DNA of 64,000 bases from Albugo candida. Lineage: Eukaryota > Oomycota > Peronosporomycetes > Albuginales > Albuginaceae. The notes below the pieces were generated by a model that was not told the DNA's origin, searched no databases, and was given only the letters and a program-made list of their open reading frames with translations. Shown piece after piece: positions 8,330 to 64,000 of this stretch. The DNA lies in assembly GCA_905220665.1 (NCBI GenBank), contig CAJNAR010000015.1, positions 186,001 to 250,000 of the forward strand. The letters are read 5' to 3'. Within the stretch, counting starts at the first letter, position 1, and every line of letters starts with the position of its first letter. A program made the translations under genes and the position numbers.

Positions 8330-11300
8330 TCCCCCTCAACATACTTGAACGGATTCCACTTGCCTTGATGAGGTGCTCGAAGTGTTTTGTCGATATTGAC
8401 TGTGTCAAGAAGCCGGCTAGTTGCAGTATCGTTGGAATGTAGTCCATTCGGATAACTGCTGATTTAATGTGCTGGCGAATAAAATGATGCCTGATGTCGA
8501 TATGCTTCGCTCGACTCTGATAACCATTGTTTGTTGCAATTGCGATTGCGCTCTTATTAAAGTTGGATAGGCCTGTCGAACTGTTGTTCCATTATCTCGC
8601 AATAGCTGCTTCACCCATATAATTTCTTGCACGCACGCGGACATTGCCATGTATTCAGCTTCAACTGAGCTAAGTAATGCTCTTTTGCAGTCGGGATTTG
8701 TATACAACTGGAGTTCCATTTATCACGACAATAATGCCTGGTGTTGAACGTCGATCATCGTGACTGCCTACCCAATCTGAATGGCTGTAGGCTATGACCA
8801 TCAATTCTTCATTTTCACCGGTAAATATTAAACCAAGTTTCGAGTTGTCTTCAGATATCTGAGGACTCGAATCCCTGCATTCCAGTGGGCCATACACGGC
8901 CTCTCCAAGAATCGACTTAATTCACATACTGCAAATGCTAAGTTTGGTCTGGTGCTCATTGCGATATAAAGTAGGGATCCAATCAACGAACGATATGGCC
9001 TGTTCTTTGTTTTTCAGGCGTTCATCTTCACTTAATGTCTTTGTCAGTTTTTGACTTGTGCAAGTTGGATTGCAAACAGGAACTGACTTCTCTTGGCCGA
9101 ATTTCCCAACCATTCGTTTTATATCAGCCTTCTGTTACAAGTGCATCACTTTCATTTTGTTGTCGTACGATGATTCCATACCCAAAATGCACTTGGCGCA
9201 CCCAATCTCTTCGTTGTGAATATTCGGGCAAGTAGTTCGCTGATGCCTTCTATCACATCAATTGATTTTGCTGAAATCAACATGTCATCCACATAGAGTG
9301 CGATATACACGAAATTTGTTTGTTCAGGGCGAACGAGAATACATGAGTCGGATCTGCGTTGCTTGAACCCAAGCTCCAAGAAAACTTTAGAGATAGTCCT
9401 GTACCATACTGTTGATGCTTGCTTCAATCCATATAAACTTCGTTGCAGTTTGCACAGTTGACCCGGGTTGATTTCAATCCTGGTGGTGGCCACATGTACA
9501 CATCTTCTTCCAAATATCCATTAATAAATGCTGTGTCCACATCATACTGGTGAATTTCCTAACCAAGTTGTACACAGACACTGAGGAATACTCTGATCGA
9601 ACTAGTGCTTGCAACTGGAGCACAAGTTTCCTTATAGTCGACTCCGGCTGTTTGTCGAAATCCTTGCGCAACTAGTCGTGCTTTATATCTCTGAATTGCA
9701 CCATGTTCGTCTCGCTTGATTGCAAACACCCTTTTACACCCGATCACTTTTTGGTCTTTTGGACGATCTACTATTTTCCATGTCTTCTTTTCATCCAATG
9801 ACTTAAACTCTGATGCTATCGCATCTTTCCACTGGACAGCTTCACCGTTTTGAAAAGCTACCTGATATGTTGTAGGGCTTTCAATGGCTGCGTTTGCTTG
9901 CTCAGACGTAAGTCGCAGTCGCTTTGACTCTCGATTGGCTTCATCATAATCGAATTGATTTTCATCTGCATATGTAATGATAGCATCGCTGAACCTACTT
10001 GCTGGTGGTGTTCGGTGGCGACGTCGGGGAACTATGCAAGTGTCGTGATTATGCGAATACTCATCCATTTCGATTCTCCCCCTCGAGACAATATTGGTTT
10101 CTGGACGTTGACTATGAGTAGTAACTTGGCGGGGAGGTACTGGAATAAGTTCTCGAGCATAATTTTCATCCACCTCCATGGAGGAAGGGCCGGCAGCGTC
10201 GTGATCCAAAGGTACTAAGTGTGTGTCGGATCGTCCAGGTACCGCAAGTTGGTGATTTTGGTAAGGTTGGCCAGCTTGATCAATTTCCATAAATTGAGGT
10301 TCCTGAGACTCGATCCGTGCACATATGGAGTACGATGATCATCATTAAAGAGTTCCAGTCTTGAAGTCATTTCAGGGTTTTGGATTACTTGAACATACTT
10401 GGTCTGGTTTACTTCTGTTGGGTGAGTACTTCGGGATATCTCTACTCGCTTGTTCGATATGTTGAATACCCGATACGCTTTCGAGTCGTCAGCAATCCCA
10501 GGAATAAGCATGAGTAGGCCTTCGCGTCTAGTTTAGATTGCTTCAACTTGTCGATATGTGCAAAGCCAGTAGATCCAAAAACACGGAGATGACTGAGATC
10601 TGGCTTTTCTTTGAAATAAATTTCCATTGGTGTGGAGTAGGGTCGAAGACTGTTGGAACGCAATTTGTGATGTATGCTGCGGTACTGACAGCTTTTGCCC
10701 ATCACTCTTTTGCTACATTCTTGTGCTCCAGCATTGCACGAGCTCTTTTCATGAGTCTGCGGCTCATTCGTTCCGCCAAACCATTCTGTTGCGGTGAGAA
10801 CGGGGACGTTGTCTGATGGACTATTCTGTTTCGTCTACACTCTTCCTCGAACCGCCGGTTCACAAACTCTGTACCGCAATCCGTACGTATACACTTGATC
10901 CTGTTGTTGGTTTGGCGTTCCATCATGGCTTTTTATTGGATGAAATAATCGAACACTTGCTATTTTGTCCATAGAAAGTAAACTTTGACCAATCGTGAGT
11001 ATAGGCGATAAGCGTCAATTATATCGAGAACCACCTGCTGATGTTGTTTTCATCGGCCCAATGAGATCACTGTGAGCTATTTGTATCACTTCCGTTGTCT
11101 TCACCTCATTGCTCTTTGCCTTGGGAAATGGTTTCACCGATGATTTTCCCTTTGCACAACTCGCGCAAACCTCATCTTTGCTATCAGCATCGTGAATCGA
11201 ACGTTCTTTCACTTCGACTCCGGTGGAGCATTCTTGCGTTTGTTGAAGTTGAGCCAATGGCAGATGCCCAAACGAGCATGCCATATTTCCCAGTCTTGAC

Positions 11301-52270: not shown

Positions 52271-53763
52271 TTTTATTAATTGAAAGAATACGATTGGTCT
52301 TTAAGTATCCAATTAACCTACATCATTACATTGTTCATAGCGATGCAAATTGGTTAAAACATTTGGTTGCGTGGTTGTTAGTGTTTATAGGGTCCCTGCT
52401 GGGTTCTCAGGTACTGATTTGTCGTAACCAATGCATTGTAGTTCCCCGTGCGAATTTTCATCTATGTTCTGACTAGCATGCGAATGAATGGTATTATAGT
52501 CAGTACAGTTAGTAAGTAGGAATTGACATCTTTCGTGAGTGTTAAAGCTTTTCTTTTTCGTTGTAACAAGTGGCTACCCAAAGAGAGTAAATATCCAACG
52601 CATCTAGCACTTCCATACTATAAATCTCTGTCAGATGTGTCGAGACCGCCAGCAACCTGCCCCGGGTATGACGAATTTCAAACGAACTGATATTTGGGGC
52701 AATGGTATTTCAGCGCTAGTCACCGTCATAGAAGAAATGGCTACTTCGCAAACGATCTATTTCACATGACACAATGCATTTGTTCGACATCTATGTATAT
52801 TATATTACTAAGTCAGATAGTAGCACAATAGAGCTGCCACTTTTGTGGTAGCGACTCTTTAAACAGACCAGCCGCGAACATGGAATAAATCACTGCAAGA
52901 GGAATTGTCGGCGGGATTGTAATGGTTGAAGAATTTATTGTTACTTTTGCTACACACGCTTCTTGATGTGGACTTAAAACGTCTACTACTAGTAATTTAC
53001 TGTATCGATCGATTTATGGAATTATTCATATCGCACGTATAGACAATGCTCTCGTAAGTGCTATTTCAGGAATCTAATTTGGCTTAAAGAGCATTGGGGC
53101 ATTATGAGCATATACTTCCCACCTTTTGGCGCATTCTGCGTTAGTTCTGAGCGCAACCTCGAAGTGATAAACGAGCATGATTAGTACAGCTTCTGTGAGC
53201 TGCTTCATAACATTTTGTTTCACACAAATATGGGTAGCCAGCAACCGTACACATATGGGAGCACTAGATGTCGCGCACTTCGTGTTCGATTATCATTTCA
53301 TCAGTTGGTATTAATCAGCGAATGCTTCCACGTAATCACTCCGCTTCAGCTTACAGGCAGGTTTAAATCAGACGATATAGACCTGTGTTTGCATCATATC
53401 CTATTTGTAGAGAAATATCTCTACAGGTAAGGATTACCAACTGAGAGTACCATTAGTACGGGTCAGCGTACAGTCTATTACTGCAATGATACCACACGCA
53501 CAATCCTTTCCGAAGGGTAATTCTTATAGTAGCCCCCAACACCAGCATTCACTCATCGTACGTAAACGCTTTCTAGCTCAACTTGCCTAAAACTCATGCT
53601 TGCGGCTTGATGCATACTCGAGTCATGAAAAGCTCTCGCCCAAGTCCTCTTCGTATAGGCTCTGTCCTCTTCATGCTGAGACGCTTCAACTCGCGTCTAT
53701 TCATACAATTCCAATCAGTCCGCTGACAACTCTCTGCGTACATGCGGGCAAAGTCGCTACAAC
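52271..53763. other. Long divergent intergenic region between HEMB and the kinesin-like gene
   Basis: About 1.5 kb of AT-rich sequence with only short motif-free ORFs (the longest, 71 codons, at 53215-53430). No repeat, LTR fragment or RNA gene recognised. Two promoters must lie at its ends. Confidence 0.5.
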
Positions 53764-56307
53764 ATGGGCGACAACGATACTCTCACACAATTGAGACATG
53801 TTCAACGCGCACATATTTCTGCTAAAATCTCCTGCAATCCATTTCCATCAGTTCGAACGCACACCGCAGAAAAACAACGCGCGCATTCACAAAGCACATT
53901 CGAGACGCGCCGTTCTCAGCGCAATAAACTCGCTATGTCATCCCCACTCTGCAATTCTGTTGTCGACACTTTGAGCGCAAGAATCCAACATCCACGCATA
54001 TCGACACTTTGTGCATGCATTTCGATGCAGCAGGAAGAAATACAAACGTTGAGACAGAATTTGAGAGAAACGCGATTCGAGCTGCTACGAAGCGAAATAG
54101 AATATCAGGAGTTGTTTCAAGAGCGTAAGCTGATTCAAATCGAGACAGACGCACTCAATACCGACGTACAACGCTTAACGATGGAGCTCGGTCAGCGAGG
54201 TGAGCAAGTACGAAAGCTGTTAGAAAAGAGGAACCAATATAAAGCAAAGTATAAGCATTCGGAGCGGGAGAAACAAGTATCTGAGCGAAAAATACACGAA
54301 ATTCGCGCTGAAAGCGATCAATTACTACAGCAAGTACAAAAAGCTCGTGACGCGCGAGACCGCATGCAACATCTTTACATTCAGCTTAAAGACGCTGCAA
54401 CTTCTTCACTATCCGCACAGTTGTCATCGCAAGTCGCAATTGAGCCCGTATCGGAAATCTCTCTTGTAGAGTGGAAACGAATTTATCGGCGTCGTATCCA
54501 TAAAGTTGCGGTGAGCACACTTTTGGGCATGCGGACGCTCCGGAAGTCTTTGTTTTGTATTCGGGCTCCTGCATTCGAGCTTCGAGAAGAAATGCTGAGG
54601 TTCACAGCTGCGTTACACGGTCCATTAATGAGTCTTGTGAAGCACTCACAAAAGGCTGAGAGTGCGTGTGCCAAAGCTTTATTGTTGGACAGTTCTTTAC
54701 AAAGCTCACAACTCGCACGCTGTCAATTACAGGAAGAATTGTGGAGGTCACGGAACAACGTCTCACTTGTGTGCCAATTGTATTATCCGTATGAAAATAC
54801 AGAGGAAAACCCAGGCAAGAAAGTCGTTTTTCTGGAGGAAAACACGCACGACGGTCTTTTGGATGTGTCGATCGATGAGGCAAATCGACAAGTGGTCCTA
54901 CGGGATCACAGTCGATCTCAAAAGCGGGAAAAATGCTCGACACTGGAAATTCGGCTTGACTGTATCGAGTCGGATGGACCGGGTATTCAAGACGTTGAGA
55001 GTTTCTGTCCCTTGTTGGAAAGTGTGTTGGATGGGTACAACGGCCTTTGTCTCTATATTGACACACTCGCATCCACCGGATCATTTGAAGACGGTCTGAA
55101 AGTCTTAAATGCACTTTACGATAAAAGTGCACGCAAGTCTTCTCAGGGCGCTTTGCGTCATTTTAAGCTGAAAATGAGCTTTGCTGCTGTTTACGGTGAC
55201 AATGTTTGCGACTTGTTGACGTCGAATCTGAGCGTTCTTCCAGTGACAACTGAGTACGAACCGCTGCTTACTTTTGTGGAGAGAGATTTCGATGAGGCTA
55301 GTGATCTGATGATGAAAGGAGTGGCCAGGCTGAACACTGAAAGTGGACACAGTATGCGATCAGCGCATCGAGTCCTTACAGTGAACGTGATATTTGAAAA
55401 AGGGTCGACTGCGTACACCACAAAACTTCAAATTCTGCAATCGACTGGAAAGCAGATTCCTGAAATTGGAGCTCTTCTACAGCTTTTAGAAGATGCTCGT
55501 ACCAGCGAGGAGATCGAGACACATCAAAATCGGGCTCTCCTTTCACTTCTGAAAGATACCACGCGATCGAACGATAAGCTCCTTTTGGTGTTGAACGTAC
55601 CCGCTACCTCCACTCAGCGCTCGCTTCCAATCGATTCGGACACATTCCGCATGTTTCAGGCAATACAGGGTATTCGTGTAATAAATCGACAGCAGATACC
55701 GCCCATATTCGAAGCTCATCCACCAGGGGCACCACATACGCTCCCCAAATCCGAAAGCTTAAACGACACACACGATGAAAAACCCGGTAGAATTCGACCA
55801 CAATCTCCACAATATTCCGTGTATGCAAAACAGCTAACAGAGCGCCTGAACGTCAAAGCCTCAGCTCAAATGAAACCCTTATCGAAAGAAAATAGCGAGA
55901 CGAAAATGAGTGAAATTCCGAGAATTCCGCCCAAATTGCTGCTTGATTCCTCAATAAAGAGAATTGCATCGCGAGCACCGTCTCCACTCAACAAACATGC
56001 AGACAGATGTCTTTCCGCTTCCAAAATTCGCGTTCCTCAGGGAGCAGCAGCTCGAATGGATGCTGTCAAGGTGATAGAGCCAAAACAAAGGGTACAAGAA
56101 AGATTGGGCGGCGTCTTATTAAGCACAAAACAGGCACAAGCGTATGAGAAGCAAATTGTCGAAAAAAACAAACTTTTGGCTTCTGATTCCTTTCGCACAC
56201 TTTCGAGTCGTCCAACTGTTCCACAAATCGGAATTAATCGAATTCGAACACCGACATCTAACGCGAAAAACGCTCAGCAACCACAGCGAAGAGCGCCATT
56301 CAGATAA
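53764..56307 (+). CDS. Kinesin-like protein with degenerate motor domain
   Basis: 847 residues, single exon, ATG 53764 (an alternative ATG is at 53935). A coiled coil (about 85-215, for example IQIETDALNTDVQRLTMEL) precedes a region (about 330-640) whose order of elements follows a C-terminal kinesin motor. NNVSLVCQLYYP stands for 'N.RV.CRVRP', LESVLDGYNGLCLYIDTL for 'V...LDGYN.CIFAYGQT', FKLKMSFAAVYGDNVCDLL for 'V.VS..EIYNE.I.DLL', GHSMRSAHRVLTV for 'SSRSHSVF.I', and ALLSLLKDTTRSNDKLLLVL for 'LT.LLQDSLGGN.KTLM.V'. The P-loop (GQTGSGKT) reads DTLASTGS and switch II (DLAGSE) is unrecognisable, so ATP hydrolysis is very unlikely. A basic tail follows. Vik1/Cik1-type non-catalytic kinesins are the nearest known analogy. 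Confidence 0.7.
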   Translation: MGDNDTLTQLRHVQRAHISAKISCNPFPSVRTHTAEKQRAHSQSTFETRRSQRNKLAMSSPLCNSVVDTLSARIQHPRISTLCACISMQQEEIQTLRQNLRETRFELLRSEIEYQELFQERKLIQIETDALNTDVQRLTMELGQRGEQVRKLLEKRNQYKAKYKHSEREKQVSERKIHEIRAESDQLLQQVQKARDARDRMQHLYIQLKDAATSSLSAQLSSQVAIEPVSEISLVEWKRIYRRRIHKVAVSTLLGMRTLRKSLFCIRAPAFELREEMLRFTAALHGPLMSLVKHSQKAESACAKALLLDSSLQSSQLARCQLQEELWRSRNNVSLVCQLYYPYENTEENPGKKVVFLEENTHDGLLDVSIDEANRQVVLRDHSRSQKREKCSTLEIRLDCIESDGPGIQDVESFCPLLESVLDGYNGLCLYIDTLASTGSFEDGLKVLNALYDKSARKSSQGALRHFKLKMSFAAVYGDNVCDLLTSNLSVLPVTTEYEPLLTFVERDFDEASDLMMKGVARLNTESGHSMRSAHRVLTVNVIFEKGSTAYTTKLQILQSTGKQIPEIGALLQLLEDARTSEEIETHQNRALLSLLKDTTRSNDKLLLVLNVPATSTQRSLPIDSDTFRMFQAIQGIRVINRQQIPPIFEAHPPGAPHTLPKSESLNDTHDEKPGRIRPQSPQYSVYAKQLTERLNVKASAQMKPLSKENSETKMSEIPRIPPKLLLDSSIKRIASRAPSPLNKHADRCLSASKIRVPQGAAARMDAVKVIEPKQRVQERLGGVLLSTKQAQAYEKQIVEKNKLLASDSFRTLSSRPTVPQIGINRIRTPTSNAKNAQQPQRRAPFR

Positions 56308-56319
56308 TAACGTTAAGAA

Positions 56320-57195
56320 ATGACAGTACACATTTCAGAAAACGCAGATGACGTGGGGAGAGCGGTAGGCGCATTGGTGGACACATTGAGCTCAAATGCG
56401 ATACAAACAAACGGGCGATTCACAATCGCCATCTCTGGAGGATCCCTCCCCAAAGTACGTCCCAATTGCTGCAGTCTCAAGCATTTAGTGAACGTCATGA
56501 CAGATTTTACAAAGCGGATTGGAAGCGATGGCGTCGGCAAATATCGACTTTACAAAATGGCACGTATTTTTCGCAGATGAGCGTTGTGTGGCTTTGGATC
56601 ATGCTGACAGCAATTATAGAGCGTGTCATGAAGCGTTCTTCAGTCGGGTAGGTTTTCGAGTCGCAAAACAGCTTCTAAGCAGTTTTGTTGTTGAAAGGTG
56701 TCGATCCCAAGAGATCAGATTTACACCATCGATTCCGTCGACGATTCGAGCAAGGCAGCAAAGATTTATGAAGACCAGCTCCGTAATGTGTTTGGCGAGC
56801 CTGATGTACCCACTTTCGATCTCATATTGCTGGGAATGGGTCCAGACGGACACACTTGCTCATTGTTCCCCGACCATCCTCTGCTCTTGGAGAAGACGAA
56901 ATGGGTCGCTAGAATACAGGATTCACCAAAACCACCAGCAGAACGCATCACATTGACGCTTCCTGTGGTCAACAATGCACATCATGTAAGGCCTGTGATC
57001 GCTTATGGATGTTTGCTTATAGTCGTTCTTCAGGTCGCTTTTGTCGTCACGGGAGCCAACAAAGCAGAAACACTACAAGCGATTTTGCAAAACGAAAAGA
57101 TCGTGGAAGCTCAAAAATTACCTGCAGGGTTGATTCAACCTCGTCAAGGCAAAGTTGAATGGTTTCTGGATGCAGCAGCAGCTTCCAAATTGTGA
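56320..57195 (+). CDS. PGLS: 6-phosphogluconolactonase, four exons
   Basis: Exons 56320-56454, 56504-56647, 56698-56985 and 57034-57195 (introns 48-50 bp), 242 residues in exact frame. The enzyme hydrolyses 6-phosphogluconolactone in the oxidative pentose phosphate pathway, supplying NADPH. Seen: [12 protein letters not shown] at the first splice, [65 protein letters not shown] joined to [14 protein letters not shown], and the C-terminal [19 protein letters not shown]. These are all family hallmarks and the length is normal. The start codon lies only 12 bp after the kinesin-like gene's stop, so its promoter must overlap that gene. Confidence 0.95.
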
Positions 57196-57358: not shown

Positions 57359-58894
57359 CTATCCAACCAATACGAGTCCAAAAGTCAATCCGAACGCAAG
57401 CATCCAAATAGGAGACAAATCGGTCGCTCCATTGCGCTTGGATCTCGTCGTTGGGACGCTCAACACGTCAGTGGGATATTGAGATGCATCAAAAGAGCGT
57501 AGAGCCGGTGTAATCGTTTCTTCTTCACTCAATGCCGCTTTTGCTTTGGCCAAAATTGGGAATGTAAAGTTGCCAGTGTCACACTTTTCTTCGGATTTGC
57601 ACGGCTGACATATCTGCACGTAACCGTTCCGTTTGCACCCATTACCGCTTCCGCACTGCTTCACGTTATAATAACACGGCGGATTTCTCGCAGTGAGCTC
57701 GTCGAGCGTCGGCAGAGGTCGGAAATGCGCAATCACATTCGATGGAATTTGCAGTGAGCTTTTCGATCGATAGATTTCCGTATACGTCTCAATGACTTTT
57801 TGGACACGTTTCGCGTTTGCGGCTTCACTGGTGGCATTCCTCCAAAACGATAAACCTTGTTCGAACGTGCCGGTTTTATTATCCGCAGCGAATTCGACGT
57901 GACTTTCGCTTGCATTACACCAGTCACTAAAGGTTGTATACGGTTTTCCCGTACGTTCGTTGAGAATACTTGTGATTCCAACAACATCATCGATCGGCAC
58001 CCAGCCTAGAATCGAGTATGCAAACGTACAATCTACGCCATTTGGTGCGACTCCAAGCTCACAAAGTCCAGGTCGACTCGCTTTGCGACAATCTTCTGTT
58101 TTCCCGTTCTGATTTGATTTTGTTGAACAGCTGTTTGGGAAGGAAAACATGAATGCACCAGGATACGGAGCACGCGTGTCGGTGATCGTATTCGCACCAA
58201 CAAATGGACCCAGATTCGGCTGCCCATTCTCGCCACTGAATTGGTAACATTCGACGGGAAGTTTGCCCGAGTCGTCTAATGGCTCACACTGACCGTCTTT
58301 CATGGGAACCAAAGGACCATACTCGTTCACTTTCCACGACTCTGCGAATTGGGAAATGGTCTCGTTAGTTTGCACCATTTCAATGCTGTAAAAGACGAGA
58401 TTTTTCGCTCCATATTTGCGCTCACACCGTTTCGACGGAGGACGCTGATGTGAATTGATACATTCAGCCTGCACGAATCGCAAGGCCCCTTCGATGGAAA
58501 ACGTGTTGACAGTGTCGAGTCCGGCTTGATACGCTTTGGCCACGTCGTTCACATTCAGTCGGGTCGATGAAACGAAGCGATCATTCATCAAAACGGGATG
58601 CTCATTCTCCACACGACTGTGAACAAATCGCACTTTCTTCATCTGATACGCATCTCCGGTCGGTTTGACCACATTTCCATCAAGCGGATCGGGAAAGTAG
58701 CCGTTTATATCGAGCGCACTTGACTTGATCGAAGAGTTTGGTAGCTTCTCACTCAGTGTTCCAGAATACAAGCTGCTTGTGGATGAGATCATCGTATTCA
58801 GAATTTGACCAGGAACGCAATCCAAGCAGCAGATAAGTACCATCGATACGCTTTTAAGCATTCGCTTCGTATTGATTTGAGCTGAAGACGCCAT
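57359..58894 (-). CDS. Cys-rich secreted protein, predicted GPI-anchored (paralogue of 23449-24870)
   Basis: 511 residues, single exon. ATG 58892-58894; a second Met 11 residues in would give a tighter signal peptide (MLKSVSMVLICCLDCVPGQ). The C-terminus has a hydrophobic tail (IWMLAFGLTFGLVLVG) after a small-residue segment (NGATDLS), typical for GPI attachment. The ectodomain shares ordered Cys-containing blocks with the other family member, for example EGALRFVQAECIN, YGPLVPMKDGQCE, QPNLGPFVGA, PNGVDCTFAYSILGWVPIDD, FRPLPTLDELTARNPPCYYN and NGCKRNGYVQICQPC, with many N-glycosylation sites. Family unknown to me. The two copies are 33 kb apart on the same strand. Confidence 0.72.
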   Translation of the reverse strand: MASSAQINTKRMLKSVSMVLICCLDCVPGQILNTMISSTSSLYSGTLSEKLPNSSIKSSALDINGYFPDPLDGNVVKPTGDAYQMKKVRFVHSRVENEHPVLMNDRFVSSTRLNVNDVAKAYQAGLDTVNTFSIEGALRFVQAECINSHQRPPSKRCERKYGAKNLVFYSIEMVQTNETISQFAESWKVNEYGPLVPMKDGQCEPLDDSGKLPVECYQFSGENGQPNLGPFVGANTITDTRAPYPGAFMFSFPNSCSTKSNQNGKTEDCRKASRPGLCELGVAPNGVDCTFAYSILGWVPIDDVVGITSILNERTGKPYTTFSDWCNASESHVEFAADNKTGTFEQGLSFWRNATSEAANAKRVQKVIETYTEIYRSKSSLQIPSNVIAHFRPLPTLDELTARNPPCYYNVKQCGSGNGCKRNGYVQICQPCKSEEKCDTGNFTFPILAKAKAALSEEETITPALRSFDASQYPTDVLSVPTTRSKRNGATDLSPIWMLAFGLTFGLVLVG

Positions 58895-59097
58895 ATTTTA
58901 TAATGAGCATCCTCAACATGAAAGTCCACGGCCACATTCTATAGAATCCCAAAGAGTGGGACTTTGACACAAAATTGAATCTTTAAATCGCTGCGTCATA
59001 CTCCCGGCATCCAATCCCAAGCTCTACACATCAATATCTGGCTATCTCGGACCGGATATTCCCACTCTTCCGGCTGTGACACGTGCAAAGTCCTGTG

Positions 59098-62000
59098 TTA
59101 CCTGACAACGCGAGTATTGAAAACCCATTCGCGCATATTTTTGCTTCGATAGTGAGGATACGCTTCCAGAATCTTCTCATAGTTATCGAGCGTGAGACAG
59201 AAAACACTGCAAGTATGAAGGGCGATACATGTAGCTGTTCTCGGAGTTCCAAAGATGAGAGAACGCTCTCCAAAGTACCCAAATGATCCGATGACGCGTT
59301 GAGCTTCCGTCGTTTTCACCTGCACTTGTCTTGCTGTGTTTATTTCGCCCGAGTTCTTTGCTGGAGGCGCATTGACAGCTGGACTGATCTCTGTCGTTTT
59401 TTCAGCAGCATTTCGACTGCTTTCCTCACGCTGTTGCGTCATGGCCACCATATCGATTGTGGGTCCCTGAACCCAAGCTTTTGACTTGGAAAGACGTGCT
59501 TGATCCTGTAGTGTCTTGGCTATTGAGTAAAAGTTGGGGGCTGCAAGAATGGATTTCTCGAGCATTTTGGTCGCTTTCTGATGATCGCTGTCTTCGGCCA
59601 GCGCTGCTGTCAACTCTGGCGTGACTTTGACGATATTCCCTTGCTTCTCAGCTTCTTGTGCTTCGCGTGACGCAGCTGGCACAGTTGACACTCGGACAAT
59701 TCTTACGGATACCAGACCGCTCTCAATGATGTACAGACTTCTGCCCAAGTCTCCGTGCTGAATGATGACGTCATTGGTGACGTAGATCTCGTTCCGCATC
59801 GCTGTGACGATGGATTCAGCAAAAGAATACTCACAAGTGTCAAAAAGTCGAACATTTCGAATGAGATTCCCGTGGACATAGAGAGCAATTCGTCGCTTCA
59901 CTGAAGCTGTAAGTCCTCGCAGCATCTCTTCCTCATTCATCCCTTTCGTTTCATGCCAAAGAAGCGAGAAATACGCCTGCATTTGCTTCCAGCTTTGACT
60001 TGGAAATTCATGGAAAATCATGTAATGATTCGCCTGCGCTACCCGCTGCTCAAATTGAGCTCTGCGGCCTACTTCCATTTCAAATATCTTGAAATAAACA
60101 CCCGAAAGCATACTGAAGACCCCGATCGACAGGAAAATCACGACAAGTGTCACGATATTTTCAAAATAGTTCATGGGTAAAATGTCGCCGTAGCAAACGG
60201 TTGTGATGGCTCCGATGCTGAAATGCACCGAGCGCGAATATTTAGATAAGATTGGAAAGTCGTACAGCTCGTCCAGGTTCTTGAGACCGTGAAATGACAG
60301 CATTCCCGGGGCCGTAAGCCAGGACGCCATGTTCTGATGCTTATAGTAACTCCAGTAAGATGAGCTGTAAAACACACACGCAATCCAATGCGTTCCAATG
60401 ATGAAATCAAGCATCAATTGCCCGAGATAAAAGTACGTCGGTGATAATCTGGCCACTTTACGTTCATACAGCACATAGTATTTGATTTTCTCGTGCAATT
60501 GATGCACTTCCAAGCCACGTAACACCTTTGTAACACGGAATGTCGAAAGAGAGTACAGGAAATGGTCCATGAAAAATGAAGACGTCAGATGTACACGGAA
60601 CTGGAAGCAGGCAAAAGTCGGGACCAATTCGAATGGAATGATTGCAATCAAATCGCGGACATAAGACCCGTGTTCGTAATAATTCCGAGTGATTTCTGTG
60701 CGATCTGTCACGCGTTCACCTTCACGCAAAAACGTGAAATAATTGCGACAGAGAATGAAATTCATAACACTGACAACGTCGATCACTGCGAATTCGATCG
60801 CAAACCACAGCAGAAATTCACCTCGGTGATCACTACTGTCCAAACGATCTTGAAGAAAACTCGCACGAAAAGGGATCGCGAATATGCAATAGTAGTCAAC
60901 AAGCAGCATGACGATGTCCCATCCGTGTCGAAATTTAGGTGTATTCAGAAACGAGGCAAACGTTCGGGTCGGTGGAACTGCCCAAATCAAGTACGGATTC
61001 ACTCCCGAGTCCTTGCTGGACCCTAATAAGCCTGCGGCCTGTGGGATTCGAGAGGTATGAAGGGATTGTCTGCGTCCCTGTGAAAGCGCTGGTATGACCG
61101 ATGCAGCACTCTTCCTAGACATTGTGCGCTGGATTGTGGATTTGTAAGACTCAATTTGACGCTTGGAGGCGTATTCATTCGCACACGACCATTTGTTCTC
61201 AATCTGCTTTACTATTCGTGACAGATAGACTTCGATTTGGTCCATGTTGAGCAAATTCTGCTTCCGTGCTTGTTGCACGTCTCCAAACGAATGTCTGCGT
61301 TTCAAACGAGGCTTTGACTCAACTTCCACAATATCAAAGTCACATCGAGCTTTGTTATCGAAACGATACTGTCCCTCGTGATGATTATTCAGTTGTTTAC
61401 TGATATGATGCCACAACGTATCAATTAATCGAAGAGCCCAAACTCGCTTCAGGTGGCGACGCCATCGAACGACTACATCACTAGAAAATCGCACTTTCAC
61501 CTTCATTTTTCGACACTTTCGCGTACCACCGGATGCTTGCAGTCTACGGGTCAGATTCGAATTTTGCTTTATTCCACTAACTATCGACTTTAACGTTTTC
61601 GGTGCATCCAAAGCCGGGCCCTGCATCAGCCGTCTTTCAGATAATGGAAGCGAGGGCGATTCCCTAGTGGACGCTTGACTTTTTTCATAAAGGTCTTTGG
61701 ACGAGCAAACAAGCCCAAGAATCTCTGCTGCTTCGACTTTAAATGTGTCGGGCATCTGATGCACTTTGTGAGTACTGAGACTTGCTTTCTTTTGTAGCTT
61801 CTCACGCTTTGAAGTAGATCTCCCGCCATCATTTTGTGATCCCTTCTCTGGGAAAGAGCTTGCCAATTTACTCACAAACACATCGATGGATGAGGAATGA
61901 GCTTTGATGCTTCTACCGCTTCGTGGCTCAATATCAGCCCTTGTCGATTTCACAGACGTCGGAGTATCCGCAGTTTGAGGCTGAATGGAGACGTAATTTT

Positions 62001-64000
62001 GCTGCTCTAAAGAATTCAATTTGTCATGTGTACCTTCAAAGCCACAATACGTAAGGGAATCGAGTGCTTGCAAATTGATTCCTGTGCCTCCATCAAAGAA
62101 CCAATCGTCCGATACGGATACGGTGGATCCTTCAGCTCTGGAGGCGAAATTCTTCATAATGTTCAAATATGACAGAGCTACTCCATGATACTTTTTCTTC
62201 AGCCTTGTAACGATTTTATTCTCCAGCTGCATGCGCTGAGCTGGAGGCCATAAACGCTTCCAATTATTCTGATTCAGAACTAATAACTGCGAACTATGAG
62301 CAGCTCGCAGGGATGCTAGACGAACGGAGTTAGGCAGGAAGAAAGAGAACTCGCCAAACATATCCCCGGGACTGAGTGCCGCAAAAATCAAGCGAGATCT
62401 TGGCGCAAAAATCTCACCACAGCCATCCTTCAATATGTATACATTTCTTCCTGCACAAGTCGCGTCCACAATTACATCACCTTGGAGGTAAATTTCGAGT
62501 GTCAAAACTGAGGCGACGGCCTCGACTTGGGCATTGGTGAGCATATCAAACTCTGGTAAGGCTCGAACGAAATCCCCATACAGCTCTTCAAAGAGCTGAA
62601 TATGCAGCGATGGAGGCAGTAAGTCGAAAACTTCATGTGGAATTAATTGAAGATAGCATTTCGACTTGTACTCGAGACTGGCCATCGCATGTCGACGCAA
62701 CGCTGAGGGAAGGTTTCGACGTTTGGCATATTGCTCAAAACTCTCGACACGCTCATGCTGCTCTTTCGAAGCTTTGTCCAGAGTTATGATCAAAGTGCTA
62801 ATTCGACCGATAACTTGCCCGATAAAGATCCATCCCAAAATGCATATGAAAATAGAGAACACCGTTTCTAAAAAATTTCGAGCCACAATGTCACCAAAGC
62901 AATCGACTGTGAACTATTCAGAGCAGACGAATAAGAGAGAGCTTGTGGAGAAGTCAAGACATCACGTACCGTTGACAAGCACCAATACATTGCTCGTAGA
63001 TAATGTATCGAAATCGAATCTGGGTATTCCAAAAGAATCGAATCCACATTCACCCAGCTCTGGTCCGCGATACCGTGTTTCAGCTGAAGTACACCGAGCA
63101 TGTAATATAAACTTGCGACGTAATGAGCCGTGGATAGAAAAATGATGAAAAATTTGAATAAATCAAAAAGACTTGAGGCCATTGTGCTTCCATGCATATA
63201 CTCCTCCTGAATCTTTTTTTGGACGTTGTTGACAAAGTCGCTGAGTTGGGGACTTCGCAATAATCTCGGGAGACGAGCTACAGTCGCCAAATAATAGTTG
63301 TTTCCGACATAATAGATCGGCAGCATACTCCAGCAGTCGAGTGTAAACCATCCTTTTTTCCTGTATCGCTGTCGTATCAAAACGGGATCGAGAATTTTCT
63401 CTCGATATTCAGTATAGCCAAAGCGTTTGAGCTTCCAGTAAATGTCCAGGTACAAACAGAAATCGCATGAATAATCGATAATTGTGAGTTTGAGCATTGT
63501 AGAAGATGATGGTTGTGGCAAGAATGCGAGTCGGAACACAATTTGATAAAAGTTGTACACGACAATCGCTGTAATAACGCGATGCCAATAGACCACAAAA
63601 GTGCTCTTTGGGTCGAAAATAACTGACCTGCTGGTGCCCACATTCGTCCCTACATTCGAAGGCCGAAGCTTTGGCGTCACATTTCGTAAAATATGGTTCA
63701 GACTCGTTTGTATCCAGGCTGTAAACGATAAAGATATGACTCGTGACTTGGACGCTAAAAACGAGCTTCGAGCATTTTGACTCATTCCGCATTGCCTTGT
63801 GATTTTCGGATACTTTATCAAATTCTGCCCAATCTTTTTCAAAATCTCTTTTTCTTCCGCCACGTACCCATTGATTGCATAGTAGACGTCAGCAAAAACA
63901 CTTGGGTATTTTTGTACAAGGTTTAGAAAATCTTGTCGCTGGATAACTGTAATCTGAACTCCAGATACTGCTCGCGCGCTGAATTGATATAAATGTCTCT
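59098..64000 (-). CDS. Tandem-repeat cyclic-nucleotide-gated (CNGK-like) channel, 5' partial
   Basis: Exons 62970->64000 and 59098-62913 (56-bp intron in the pore region). At least 1,615 residues are visible and the frame is open to the right edge. N to C: the tail of a cyclic-nucleotide-binding domain (QITVIQRQDFLNLVQKYPSV); channel repeat A with S1 near 63600, S4 RLPRLLR near 63270, and the pore MYWCLST joined to FTVDCFGDIV; a second CNBD (YLQGDVIVDA, LSPGDMFGEFSFF; 62620-62270); a long basic linker; repeat B (about 60960-60060) with an Arg/Lys S4 (FRVTKVLRGLE) and pore ITTVCYGDILP; and a third CNBD (FGYFGERSLIFGTPRTATC) interrupted by a roughly 120-residue insertion. Such fusion of several 6-TM/CNBD units in one chain is the CNGK plan. 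Ion selectivity and ligand are inferred only. Confidence 0.85.

What the first reader, a model, noticed from the sequence alone, without database searches (positions are those of the whole stretch)
59098..64000. Single-chain, multi-repeat cyclic-nucleotide-gated channel
Two complete 6-TM channel units and three cyclic-nucleotide-binding domains (the first only partly in the window) lie in one reading frame, joined through a short intron. Since a CNBD precedes repeat A, at least one more channel unit is expected to the right, giving three or four repeats like the sperm CNGK channels. A pseudotetrameric channel in a zoosporic organism would be a candidate for cGMP/cAMP-driven chemotaxis.
Basis: partly seen in the sequence, partly recalled or inferred. 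Interest (0 to 1): 0.75.

Follow-up and report, generated by a model that had tools for sequence, protein, structure and literature searches.

The report
Four-in-one cyclic-nucleotide ion channel, oomycete
One gene of a white-rust oomycete encodes a whole ion channel, normally built from four proteins, as a single chain with four different pore linings; the same architecture seems to have evolved separately from the similar channel of animal sperm.

Summary
On the minus strand of G000:C15, four exons (phase-0 introns of 52, 54 and 56 bases) encode 2849 residues with four 6TM + C-linker + CNBD repeats; the window holds repeats III and IV and the end of CNBD II. Albugo laibachii has an 81% identical protein; a 99% match of a paralogue names Albugo candida. 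Three further four-repeat genes of this genome are intronless ORFs. Relatives occur in Phytophthora, Pythium, Globisporangium, Lagenidium and Achlya. It is not a CNGK: all CNGK repeats form one clade, each oomycete repeat position its own; same-number pairing is rejected for repeats I-III, not for IV (p 0.073). CNGK and holozoan relatives carry GYG/GFG in 179 of 188 filters; in 30 oomycete proteins only repeat II does (29 of 30; 0 of 88 elsewhere; Achlya, counted apart, differs). CNBDs I and II lack the phosphate-binding Arg; III and IV keep it. The one survey I found reports at most two repeats in oomycete CNBD channels. Most likely a cyclic-nucleotide-modulated cation channel, weakly K+-selective at best; the spore role is inferred.

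The parts
59098..62913 (-). Exon 4 of the four-repeat channel gene (1271 codons + TAA): second half of the repeat III pore, S6, C-linker, CNBD III, III-IV linker, repeat IV, CNBD IV
62914..62969 (-). Intron 3, 56 bases, GT..AG, phase 0
   Evidence: same protein junction in P0001
62970..64000 (-). Part of exon 3 inside the window; the exon goes on to G000:C15:252188 (L009 7188)
63880..64000 (-). C-terminal part of CNBD II (residues about 1236-1275); phosphate-binding Arg not conserved
62806..63617 (-). Repeat III, S1-S6, interrupted by intron 3 inside the pore loop
   Evidence: hydropathy and coordinates; HMM; limits read by eye
62887..62910 (-). Selectivity-filter segment III, TVDCFGDI (D and C where K+ channels have V and G)
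   Evidence: 7 of 7 family-A proteins, own included
62560..62805 (-). C-linker III
   Evidence: position; limits read by eye
62239..62559 (-). CNBD III with phosphate-binding cassette FGEFSFFLPNSVRLAS (from 62358), Glu and Arg kept
61003..62157 (-). Long, poorly conserved III-IV linker (about 385 residues)
60088..61002 (-). Repeat IV, S1-S6
60181..60204 (-). Selectivity-filter segment IV, TTVCYGDI
   Evidence: 7 of 7 family-A proteins, own included
59101..60087 (-). C-linker IV and CNBD IV, with a long low-confidence insert before the phosphate-binding cassette FGERSLIFGTPRTATC (from 59274), Glu and Arg kept

Best explanation
The gene encodes a pseudotetrameric CNBD channel. One chain of 2849 residues carries four 6TM-C-linker-CNBD repeats that fold around a single pore, one filter strand per repeat (shown: the four repeats; inferred: assembly). 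The architecture is older than the split of the oomycetes sampled and arose independently of CNGK (supported by trees, with caveats). Each repeat is specialised. Repeat II keeps the K+ filter TVG[FY]G, while I, III and IV carry fixed variants (GQG, DCFG, CYG), so the pore should be an asymmetric, at most weakly K+-selective cation pathway (inferred). CNBDs III and IV keep the residues that bind the cyclic phosphate while I and II have lost the Arg, so one or two bound cyclic nucleotides (CNBD IV reads PRTAT; that a Thr after the Arg favours cGMP is recalled) should shift gating through the C-linkers (inferred, by analogy with the sea-urchin CNGK where only CNBD III works). The likely place is sporangia or zoospores, linking cyclic-nucleotide changes to membrane potential or Ca2+ (inferred from class-level expression in Phytophthora infestans).
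For: Four repeats in the joined gene and in 26 of 30 oomycete or oomycete-like proteins counted; the other four are fragments or fused models with 3, 3, 1 and 8 repeats. Paralogues P0008, P0009 and P0010 are single intronless ORFs. Oomycete repeat positions I-IV are each one clade (bootstrap 98-100, SH-aLRT 91-100) in three trees, Achlya included in the last two. All CNGK repeats are one clade (100/96 with one CNGK protein, 100/99 with eight and with seven). Filters by position in the 30: repeat II GYG/GFG in 29 of 30, repeats I, III and IV in 0 of 29, 0 of 30 and 0 of 29. CNBD residues in family A, n = 7: Arg in 0, 0, 7 and 6 of 7 for CNBDs I-IV. The same genome has cyclases and phosphodiesterases. 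Spore-biased class expression in P. infestans (PMC5322657 passages).
Against: No transcript, protein or current was seen. Filters this far from TVGYG could mean a non-conducting protein. Achlya P0092 breaks the filter pattern: GYG in repeat I, none in II. EAG/hERG and zebrafish CNGK show that intact CNBDs need not be gated by cyclic nucleotides (PMC4749565 passages). [quoted passage not shown] Deep branches are long; repeat IV + CNGK IV is not rejected in one of three tests (p 0.073; 0.012, 0.0009).
Confidence: 0.65

Rival explanations
1. It is the oomycete orthologue of the animal/choanoflagellate CNGK: a cGMP-gated K+ channel inherited from a common four-repeat ancestor.
For: Same order of domains and four repeats; CNBD III intact, the one that gates sea-urchin CNGK (PMC4749565 passages); oomycete repeat IV is the neighbour of the CNGK clade in two midpoint-rooted trees (83/79; weak 50/60).
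Against: All CNGK repeats form one clade at 100/96 to 100/99. Same-number pairing: p-AU 0.0004 (I), 0.003 (II), 0.020 (III), 0.073 (IV, not rejected) in the cleanest set; 0.004, 0.015, 0.020 and 0.012 in the first set. Filters differ.
Confidence: 0.07
2. It is a four-repeat channel but not cyclic-nucleotide gated: voltage, pH or an internal ligand opens it, as in EAG/hERG or zebrafish CNGK.
For: CNBDs I and II lack the Arg; zebrafish CNGK is gated by pH, not by nucleotides; S4 segments II-IV keep Arg/Lys at spaced positions.
Against: CNBD III keeps Glu in 6 of 7 and Arg in 7 of 7, CNBD IV Glu in 7 of 7 and Arg in 6 of 7 family-A proteins, while the linkers around them drift.
Confidence: 0.22
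3. It is a non-conducting or scaffold protein: a cyclic-nucleotide or voltage sensor whose pore has lost ion conduction.
For: Three of four filters have lost GYG; D in filter III, and K/R in filter III of most members of the sister families.
Against: The odd filters III and IV are identical in 7 of 7 proteins of the window's family, and the pore domains are among the most conserved parts (88-96% identity to A. laibachii).
Confidence: 0.1
4. Two or more separate genes or a decayed gene: the repeats are joined only by our exon model.
For: Intron 1 has an unusual donor (GTTTGA); no RNA data were available; the database search with the full protein returned no A. candida entry of this gene.
Against: No stop in 2849 codons; an A. 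laibachii gene model with the same junctions; intronless four-repeat paralogues.
Confidence: 0.02

Closest known systems
CNGK, four-repeat cyclic-nucleotide-gated K+ channels of animals and choanoflagellates (PMC4749565 passages; P0036 and the holozoan rows, of which P0076, P0081 and P0083 bear that name)
   Same: One chain, four 6TM-C-linker-CNBD repeats, complete ones mostly about 2000-2400 aa; unequal CNBDs.
   Different: Filters canonical in 179 of 188 readable repeats of 52 holozoan proteins against 29 of 118 here, all in repeat II; repeats form a separate clade; III-IV filter distance mostly longer in families A-C (709-1045 against 499-748 residues).
[quoted passage not shown] 2020, PMC7576140, parts 1-4 of 5 read)
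   Same: Tandem 6TM-CNBD repeats in one chain, in oomycetes.
   Different: Two repeats with TVGYG or close variants; the same Albugo genome has two-repeat genes as well (P0011, P0012), which together with P0093 form their own clade.
Four-repeat CNBD channels of diatoms (P0037 Thalassiosira profunda; P0038, P0039 unnamed), seen
   Same: Four repeats, stramenopile (P0037).
   Different: GYG in 12 of 12 repeats; relation to the oomycete repeats unresolved.
CNG/HCN/KCNH single-repeat channels
   Same: Fold and sequence of repeat IV, closest to CNGA1/CNGA3 entries.
   Different: Four chains assemble there (established knowledge); here all four units lie in one chain.
Four-repeat Nav/Cav/NALCN channels
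   Same: Four different filter strands; most members of families B and C have Lys or Arg in filter III, as the Nav DEKA Lys is in repeat III (recalled).
   Different: They have no CNBDs and belong to another branch of the superfamily (established knowledge).

Membership tests
CNGK | Four 6TM-C-linker-CNBD repeats in one chain | tested here: met
CNGK | Canonical GYG/GFG K+ filter in the repeats | tested here: not met
   Only repeat II of the window protein
CNGK | Repeats orthologous to CNGK repeats I-IV | tested here: not met
   CNGK repeats one clade; same-number pairing rejected for I-III, not rejected for IV at p 0.073 in the cleanest set
CNGK | K+-selective current gated by cGMP or pH | not testable with these tools
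   needs electrophysiology
Two-repeat tandem CNBD channel (PMC7576140) | Exactly two repeats | tested here: not met
   four repeats
CNBD-channel superfamily | 6TM pore unit followed by C-linker and CNBD | tested here: met
   Pfam; model and fold search of repeat IV
CNBD-channel superfamily | Binding of cyclic nucleotide | not tested
   only the motif was read: Glu and Arg kept in CNBDs III and IV
Oomycete four-repeat CNBD channels (defined here) | Each repeat falls in its own position clade | tested here: met
Oomycete four-repeat CNBD channels (defined here) | Repeat II alone has GYG/GFG | tested here: met
   met by the window protein; over the 30 proteins 29 of 30 second repeats and 0 of 88 others; not met by paralogue P0010 (AYG in repeat II) nor by Achlya P0092 (GYG in repeat I, none in II)

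The most novel reading that the evidence does not exclude
Oomycetes evolved, independently of CNGK and of Nav/Cav, a class of single-chain CNBD channels whose four filter strands differ and are fixed by position within each family (GQG / G[FY]G / DCFG / CYG in the window's family; D or Y in filter I and K/R in filter III in most of the sister families). This would be a further invention of the heteromeric four-repeat pore, controlled by one or two live CNBDs, probably non-selective or Ca2+/Na+-permeable, serving spore-stage signalling.
Probability: 0.45. Interest if true: 0.75.

Novelty: new variant of a known kind. Interest (0 to 1): 0.6.

Why it matters
It suggests that fusing four CNBD-channel subunits into one gene happened more than once, and that once fused, each repeat's filter and CNBD went its own way, as in sodium and calcium channels; a 2018 review says that CNGK shows no such specialisation (PMC6259924, passages). 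The families give a natural series for testing what each filter strand contributes to ion selectivity. The proteins occur in plant-pathogenic oomycetes, and plants have no four-repeat CNBD channel that I know of (recalled), so they may be drug targets, as PMC7576140 argues for the two-repeat ones.

Tried and rejected
CNGK orthology: tested and mostly rejected (see rivals). The groups for these tests were natural (same repeat number) but were tested after the first tree was seen; pairings of different numbers were not tested. Tests that included the barnacle protein P0082 (p 9e-5 for I, 0.0009 for IV, 6e-7 for II) are partly inflated, because its repeats are misnumbered or duplicated in the prediction; I rebuilt without it and quote those values, and repeat IV then rose to p 0.073. 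A single clade of all oomycete repeats is not in the best tree but is not rejected (p 0.189), so internal duplication and fusion of different genes cannot be told apart.

Rows left out of the filter counts: from the oomycete 30, P0007 (three repeats with no clear filter) and P0092 (Achlya, reported apart); from the holozoan 52, P0089 (unnamed, no clear filter) and P0092-P0099. The repeat profile was seeded with repeats of the window protein and of P0008-P0012 that I picked by filter motif, so their four (or two) hits are by construction; the hits in P0001-P0006, P0016-P0039 and later are not. Pfam alone sees 3 Ion_trans and 3 cNMP_binding stretches in P0008, 3 and 4 in P0009, 4 and 3 in P0010, 4 and 5 in P0001. 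A profile alignment of CNBDs could not read CNBD II and most of CNBD IV in family A because of inserts; the counts come from the full-length alignment, where the place of the Arg in CNBD III of P0004 is ambiguous.

Rfam search of the window: nothing at gathering scores. Literature: 9 of 10 searches used; only open-licence PMC papers are held, so 'not in print' means not found there. The kinesin-like reading by eye of window 53680-56307 found no Pfam support. The alternative acceptor of intron 3 (six bases later) is disfavoured by alignment.
Full report
WHAT IS THERE. The reported frames exist at the reported places. The window is G000:C15:186001-250000 of a 38.9-Mb genome, and the contig goes on. 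In L009 (C15:245001-255000, identical to the window where they overlap) the gene starts at an ATG at L009 8809 (the open frame begins at 8818, just upstream) and ends with the TAA at window 59100-59098. Four exons (L009 8809-7466, 7413-7243, 7188-3970, 3913-98) are separated by introns of 52, 54 and 56 bases, all phase 0, and encode 2849 residues without a stop. The unusual donor of intron 1 (GTTTGA) is a weak point. The same protein junctions are present in the A. laibachii gene model P0001, which is 81% identical over 100% of the length.

FOUR REPEATS. The filters lie at residues 388, 952, 1580 and 2482. A profile seeded with repeats of this genome (chosen by eye from their filters, so its hits in those proteins are by construction) finds four repeats in each of P0001-P0006, which were not in the seed (in P0005 and P0006 the first is incomplete). 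Pfam finds 4 Ion_trans and 5 cNMP_binding stretches in P0001; of the window gene's own exons, exon 1 (repeat I) stays below the Pfam cut-offs. Three further genes of the genome, P0008 (2731 aa), P0009 (2326 aa) and P0010 (2521 aa), are single intronless ORFs in which Pfam sees 3 or 4 Ion_trans and 3 or 4 cNMP_binding stretches and the alignment four repeats, so a single chain does not depend on my exon model. The genome also has two-repeat genes (P0011, P0012). A search of the genome with exon 4 finds no second copy of the window's own family: the next best match is 31% identical. AlphaFold gives repeat IV as membrane helices, C-linker and CNBD (mean pLDDT 71.5, pTM 0.52, insert 454-558 of very low confidence), closest to human CNGA1/B1 and CNGA3/B3 structures (TM-score by target about 0.5, rmsd about 12 A, so the domains match but their arrangement does not fit closely).

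RELATIVES. Two searches with oomycete queries returned 7 and 24 proteins and one with a sea-urchin protein (P0036, unnamed in its source, taken as CNGK because proteins named so, P0076, P0081 and P0083, are among its relatives) returned 61, itself included. Named oomycete holders of four-repeat or partial models are Albugo candida and laibachii, Lagenidium giganteum, Pythium brassicae, oligandrum and insidiosum, Globisporangium polare, Phytophthora fragariae, fragariaefolia, infestans and idaei, and Achlya hypogyna (P0092, 2269 aa, four repeats). Several come from unnamed contigs and are called oomycete-like. Counted over 30 proteins (the window's, P0001-P0006, P0008-P0010, P0016-P0035; near-duplicates such as P0008/P0016 and P0009/P0034 included; P0007 and P0092 not), 26 have exactly four repeats; P0017 has eight (two neighbouring genes in one model) and P0026, P0029 and P0033 are incomplete.

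FILTERS. In those 30, GYG/GFG stands in 29 of 30 second repeats (the exception, P0010, has AYG) and in 0 of 29 first (one more unreadable), 0 of 30 third and 0 of 29 fourth repeats. The variants follow family and position. Window family A (7 proteins): TTLGQGD (6 of 7; the model P0006 is cut there), [ST]TVG[FY]G[DE] (7 of 7), TVDCFGD (7 of 7), TTVCYGD (7 of 7). Family B: typically ITLGYYD / TTVGYGD / TLVGS[KR]E / TTVFYGD. Family C: typically VLLGYDD / TxVGYGD / TLVGSRE / TTLFYGD. P0010: VTLGFAD / TTVAYGD / TVINYGD / SAISYGD. Achlya P0092 reads VVVGYGF / VTIQFGS / SSFDYID / TSQSLGD: mostly non-canonical too, but with GYG in repeat I and not in II, so the pattern 'repeat II alone' does not hold for it. 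In the 52 holozoan proteins 179 of 188 readable filters are GYG/GFG, and 34 of the 38 with exactly four repeats have all four; the nine others lie in the beetle protein P0088 (3), the moth protein P0090 (3), unnamed P0086 (2) and one Nematostella isoform, P0062 (1). Three diatom-like proteins have 12 of 12. That a Cys or Asp in these places weakens K+ selectivity is inference from K+-channel structure; PMC7576140 itself warns that selectivity cannot be read from primary structure.

CNBDs. In family A, with full-length alignment, the Arg of the phosphate-binding cassette is present in 0 of 7 CNBD I, 0 of 7 CNBD II, 7 of 7 CNBD III (one, P0004, ambiguous) and 6 of 7 CNBD IV; the Glu of the FGE motif is present in 7 of 7 CNBD I (as AE or GE), 6 of 7 II, 6 of 7 III and 7 of 7 IV. 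A second, profile-based alignment agrees for I and III but could not read II and most of IV in family A because of inserts. In the sea-urchin CNGK only CNBD III is functional (PMC4749565, passages), so unequal CNBDs are a shared trend. Across the gene, identity to A. laibachii is 88-96% in the four pores, 85-93% in the C-linker/CNBD parts, 68-85% in the voltage-sensor parts and 64-82% in linkers and N-terminus.

ORIGIN. Trees of single repeats (filter columns left out; 71, 82 and 78 rows) used 13 oomycete proteins and one CNGK, then 9 oomycete proteins (Achlya among them) and 8, then 7, CNGKs chosen from the holozoan rows. Each oomycete repeat position is one clade (98-100 / 91-100), with Achlya inside each in the two later trees. 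The fusion is therefore older than the split of the sampled oomycetes and of families A-D. All CNGK repeats form one clade (100/96, 100/99, 100/99). Same-number pairing of CNGK and oomycete repeats is rejected for I (p-AU 0.0004), II (0.003) and III (0.020), and not for IV (0.073) in the cleanest set; in the first set the four gave 0.004, 0.015, 0.020 and 0.012. Other pairings were not tested. Gene conversion inside CNGK could imitate this. Whether the four oomycete repeats come from one ancestor is open (p 0.189). Diatom repeats do not pair by number with oomycete ones in these trees, with long branches and mostly weak support.

WHAT IT DOES. Shown: sequence, architecture, conservation. Inferred: one chain makes one pore; it opens in response to cyclic nucleotide bound at CNBD III and/or IV; it passes cations with little K+ preference. 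The genome has the means to make and destroy cyclic nucleotides: nine Guanylate_cyc matches at seven places and eight PDEase_I matches at seven places. [quoted passage not shown] No expression of this gene itself was seen.

WHAT IS KNOWN. Pozdnyakov et al. 2020 (PMC7576140, parts 1-4 of 5 read; passages) report single-repeat and two-repeat tandem CNBD channels in oomycetes, two-repeat ones in dinoflagellates, four-repeat ones in metazoans and choanoflagellates, filters near TVGYG with rare exceptions, and no tandem channels in diatoms. Zheng and Mackrill 2016 (authors recalled; PMC4820453, passages) count CNG homologues in oomycetes; the passages seen give no repeat structure. PMC6259924 (passages) states that CNGK repeats show no obvious specialisation. 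The zoospore membrane proteome of P. parasitica has ten voltage-gated ion channels (PMC12223298, passages). The searches listed no report that I recognised of four-repeat CNBD channels in oomycetes; most listed papers were seen as listings only. Databases already hold such proteins under names such as 'Voltage-gated Ion Channel (VIC) Superfamily' or 'Cyclic nucleotide-binding domain-containing protein', so the sequences are public; the architecture and filter pattern appear undescribed.

Noticed in passing
L034:1961-3883 (G000:C1:98961-100883, +): One ORF joins an S1-S4-like Ion_trans part (E 5.8e-12) to a PDEase_I domain (E 7.1e-82): a voltage-sensor/phosphodiesterase fusion, a possible counterpart of the voltage-sensor/cyclase fusions of PMC12223298.
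   Followed up: partly
P0037 (Thalassiosira profunda), P0038, P0039: Four-repeat CNBD channels of about 2190 aa with GYG in all four repeats; PMC7576140 states that no tandem channels were found in diatoms.
   Followed up: partly
L031, L032 and most relatives among P0016-P0035: Sister families carry Lys or Arg in the filter of repeat III (TLVGS[KR]E; P0021 and P0026 have Thr there), recalling the Lys of the Nav DEKA ring, also in repeat III (the comparison is recalled).
   Followed up: partly
P0017, P0029, P0005: Public gene models fuse neighbours: two four-repeat genes in Pythium oligandrum (8 repeats), phosphate acetyltransferase with a channel in A. laibachii, glucosidase II with a channel in P. 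insidiosum. In L012 the acetyltransferase and channel ORFs overlap in different frames if the first ATG is used; A. candida P0016 is 43 residues shorter.
   Followed up: no
window 59098-64000: The full-length search returned the A. laibachii protein but no A. candida entry of this gene, perhaps because its public model is split.
   Followed up: no
P0007, P0089: Proteins of Phytophthora fragariaefolia and of an unnamed source with three and four related repeats but no recognisable filter: perhaps a further, pore-less family.
   Followed up: no
window 53680-56307 (+): 875-aa ORF, kinesin-like by eye but with no Pfam match.
   Followed up: partly
window 57359-58897 (-): 512-aa ORF with hydrophobic ends by eye, no Pfam match.
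   Followed up: partly
window 56501-57195 (+): Two overlapping frames that by eye (recalled motif [13 protein letters not shown]) look like a 6-phosphogluconolactonase gene with introns.
   Followed up: no
P0082 (Pollicipes pollicipes): Predicted CNGK relative with two identical middle repeats; probably a prediction artefact.
   Followed up: no
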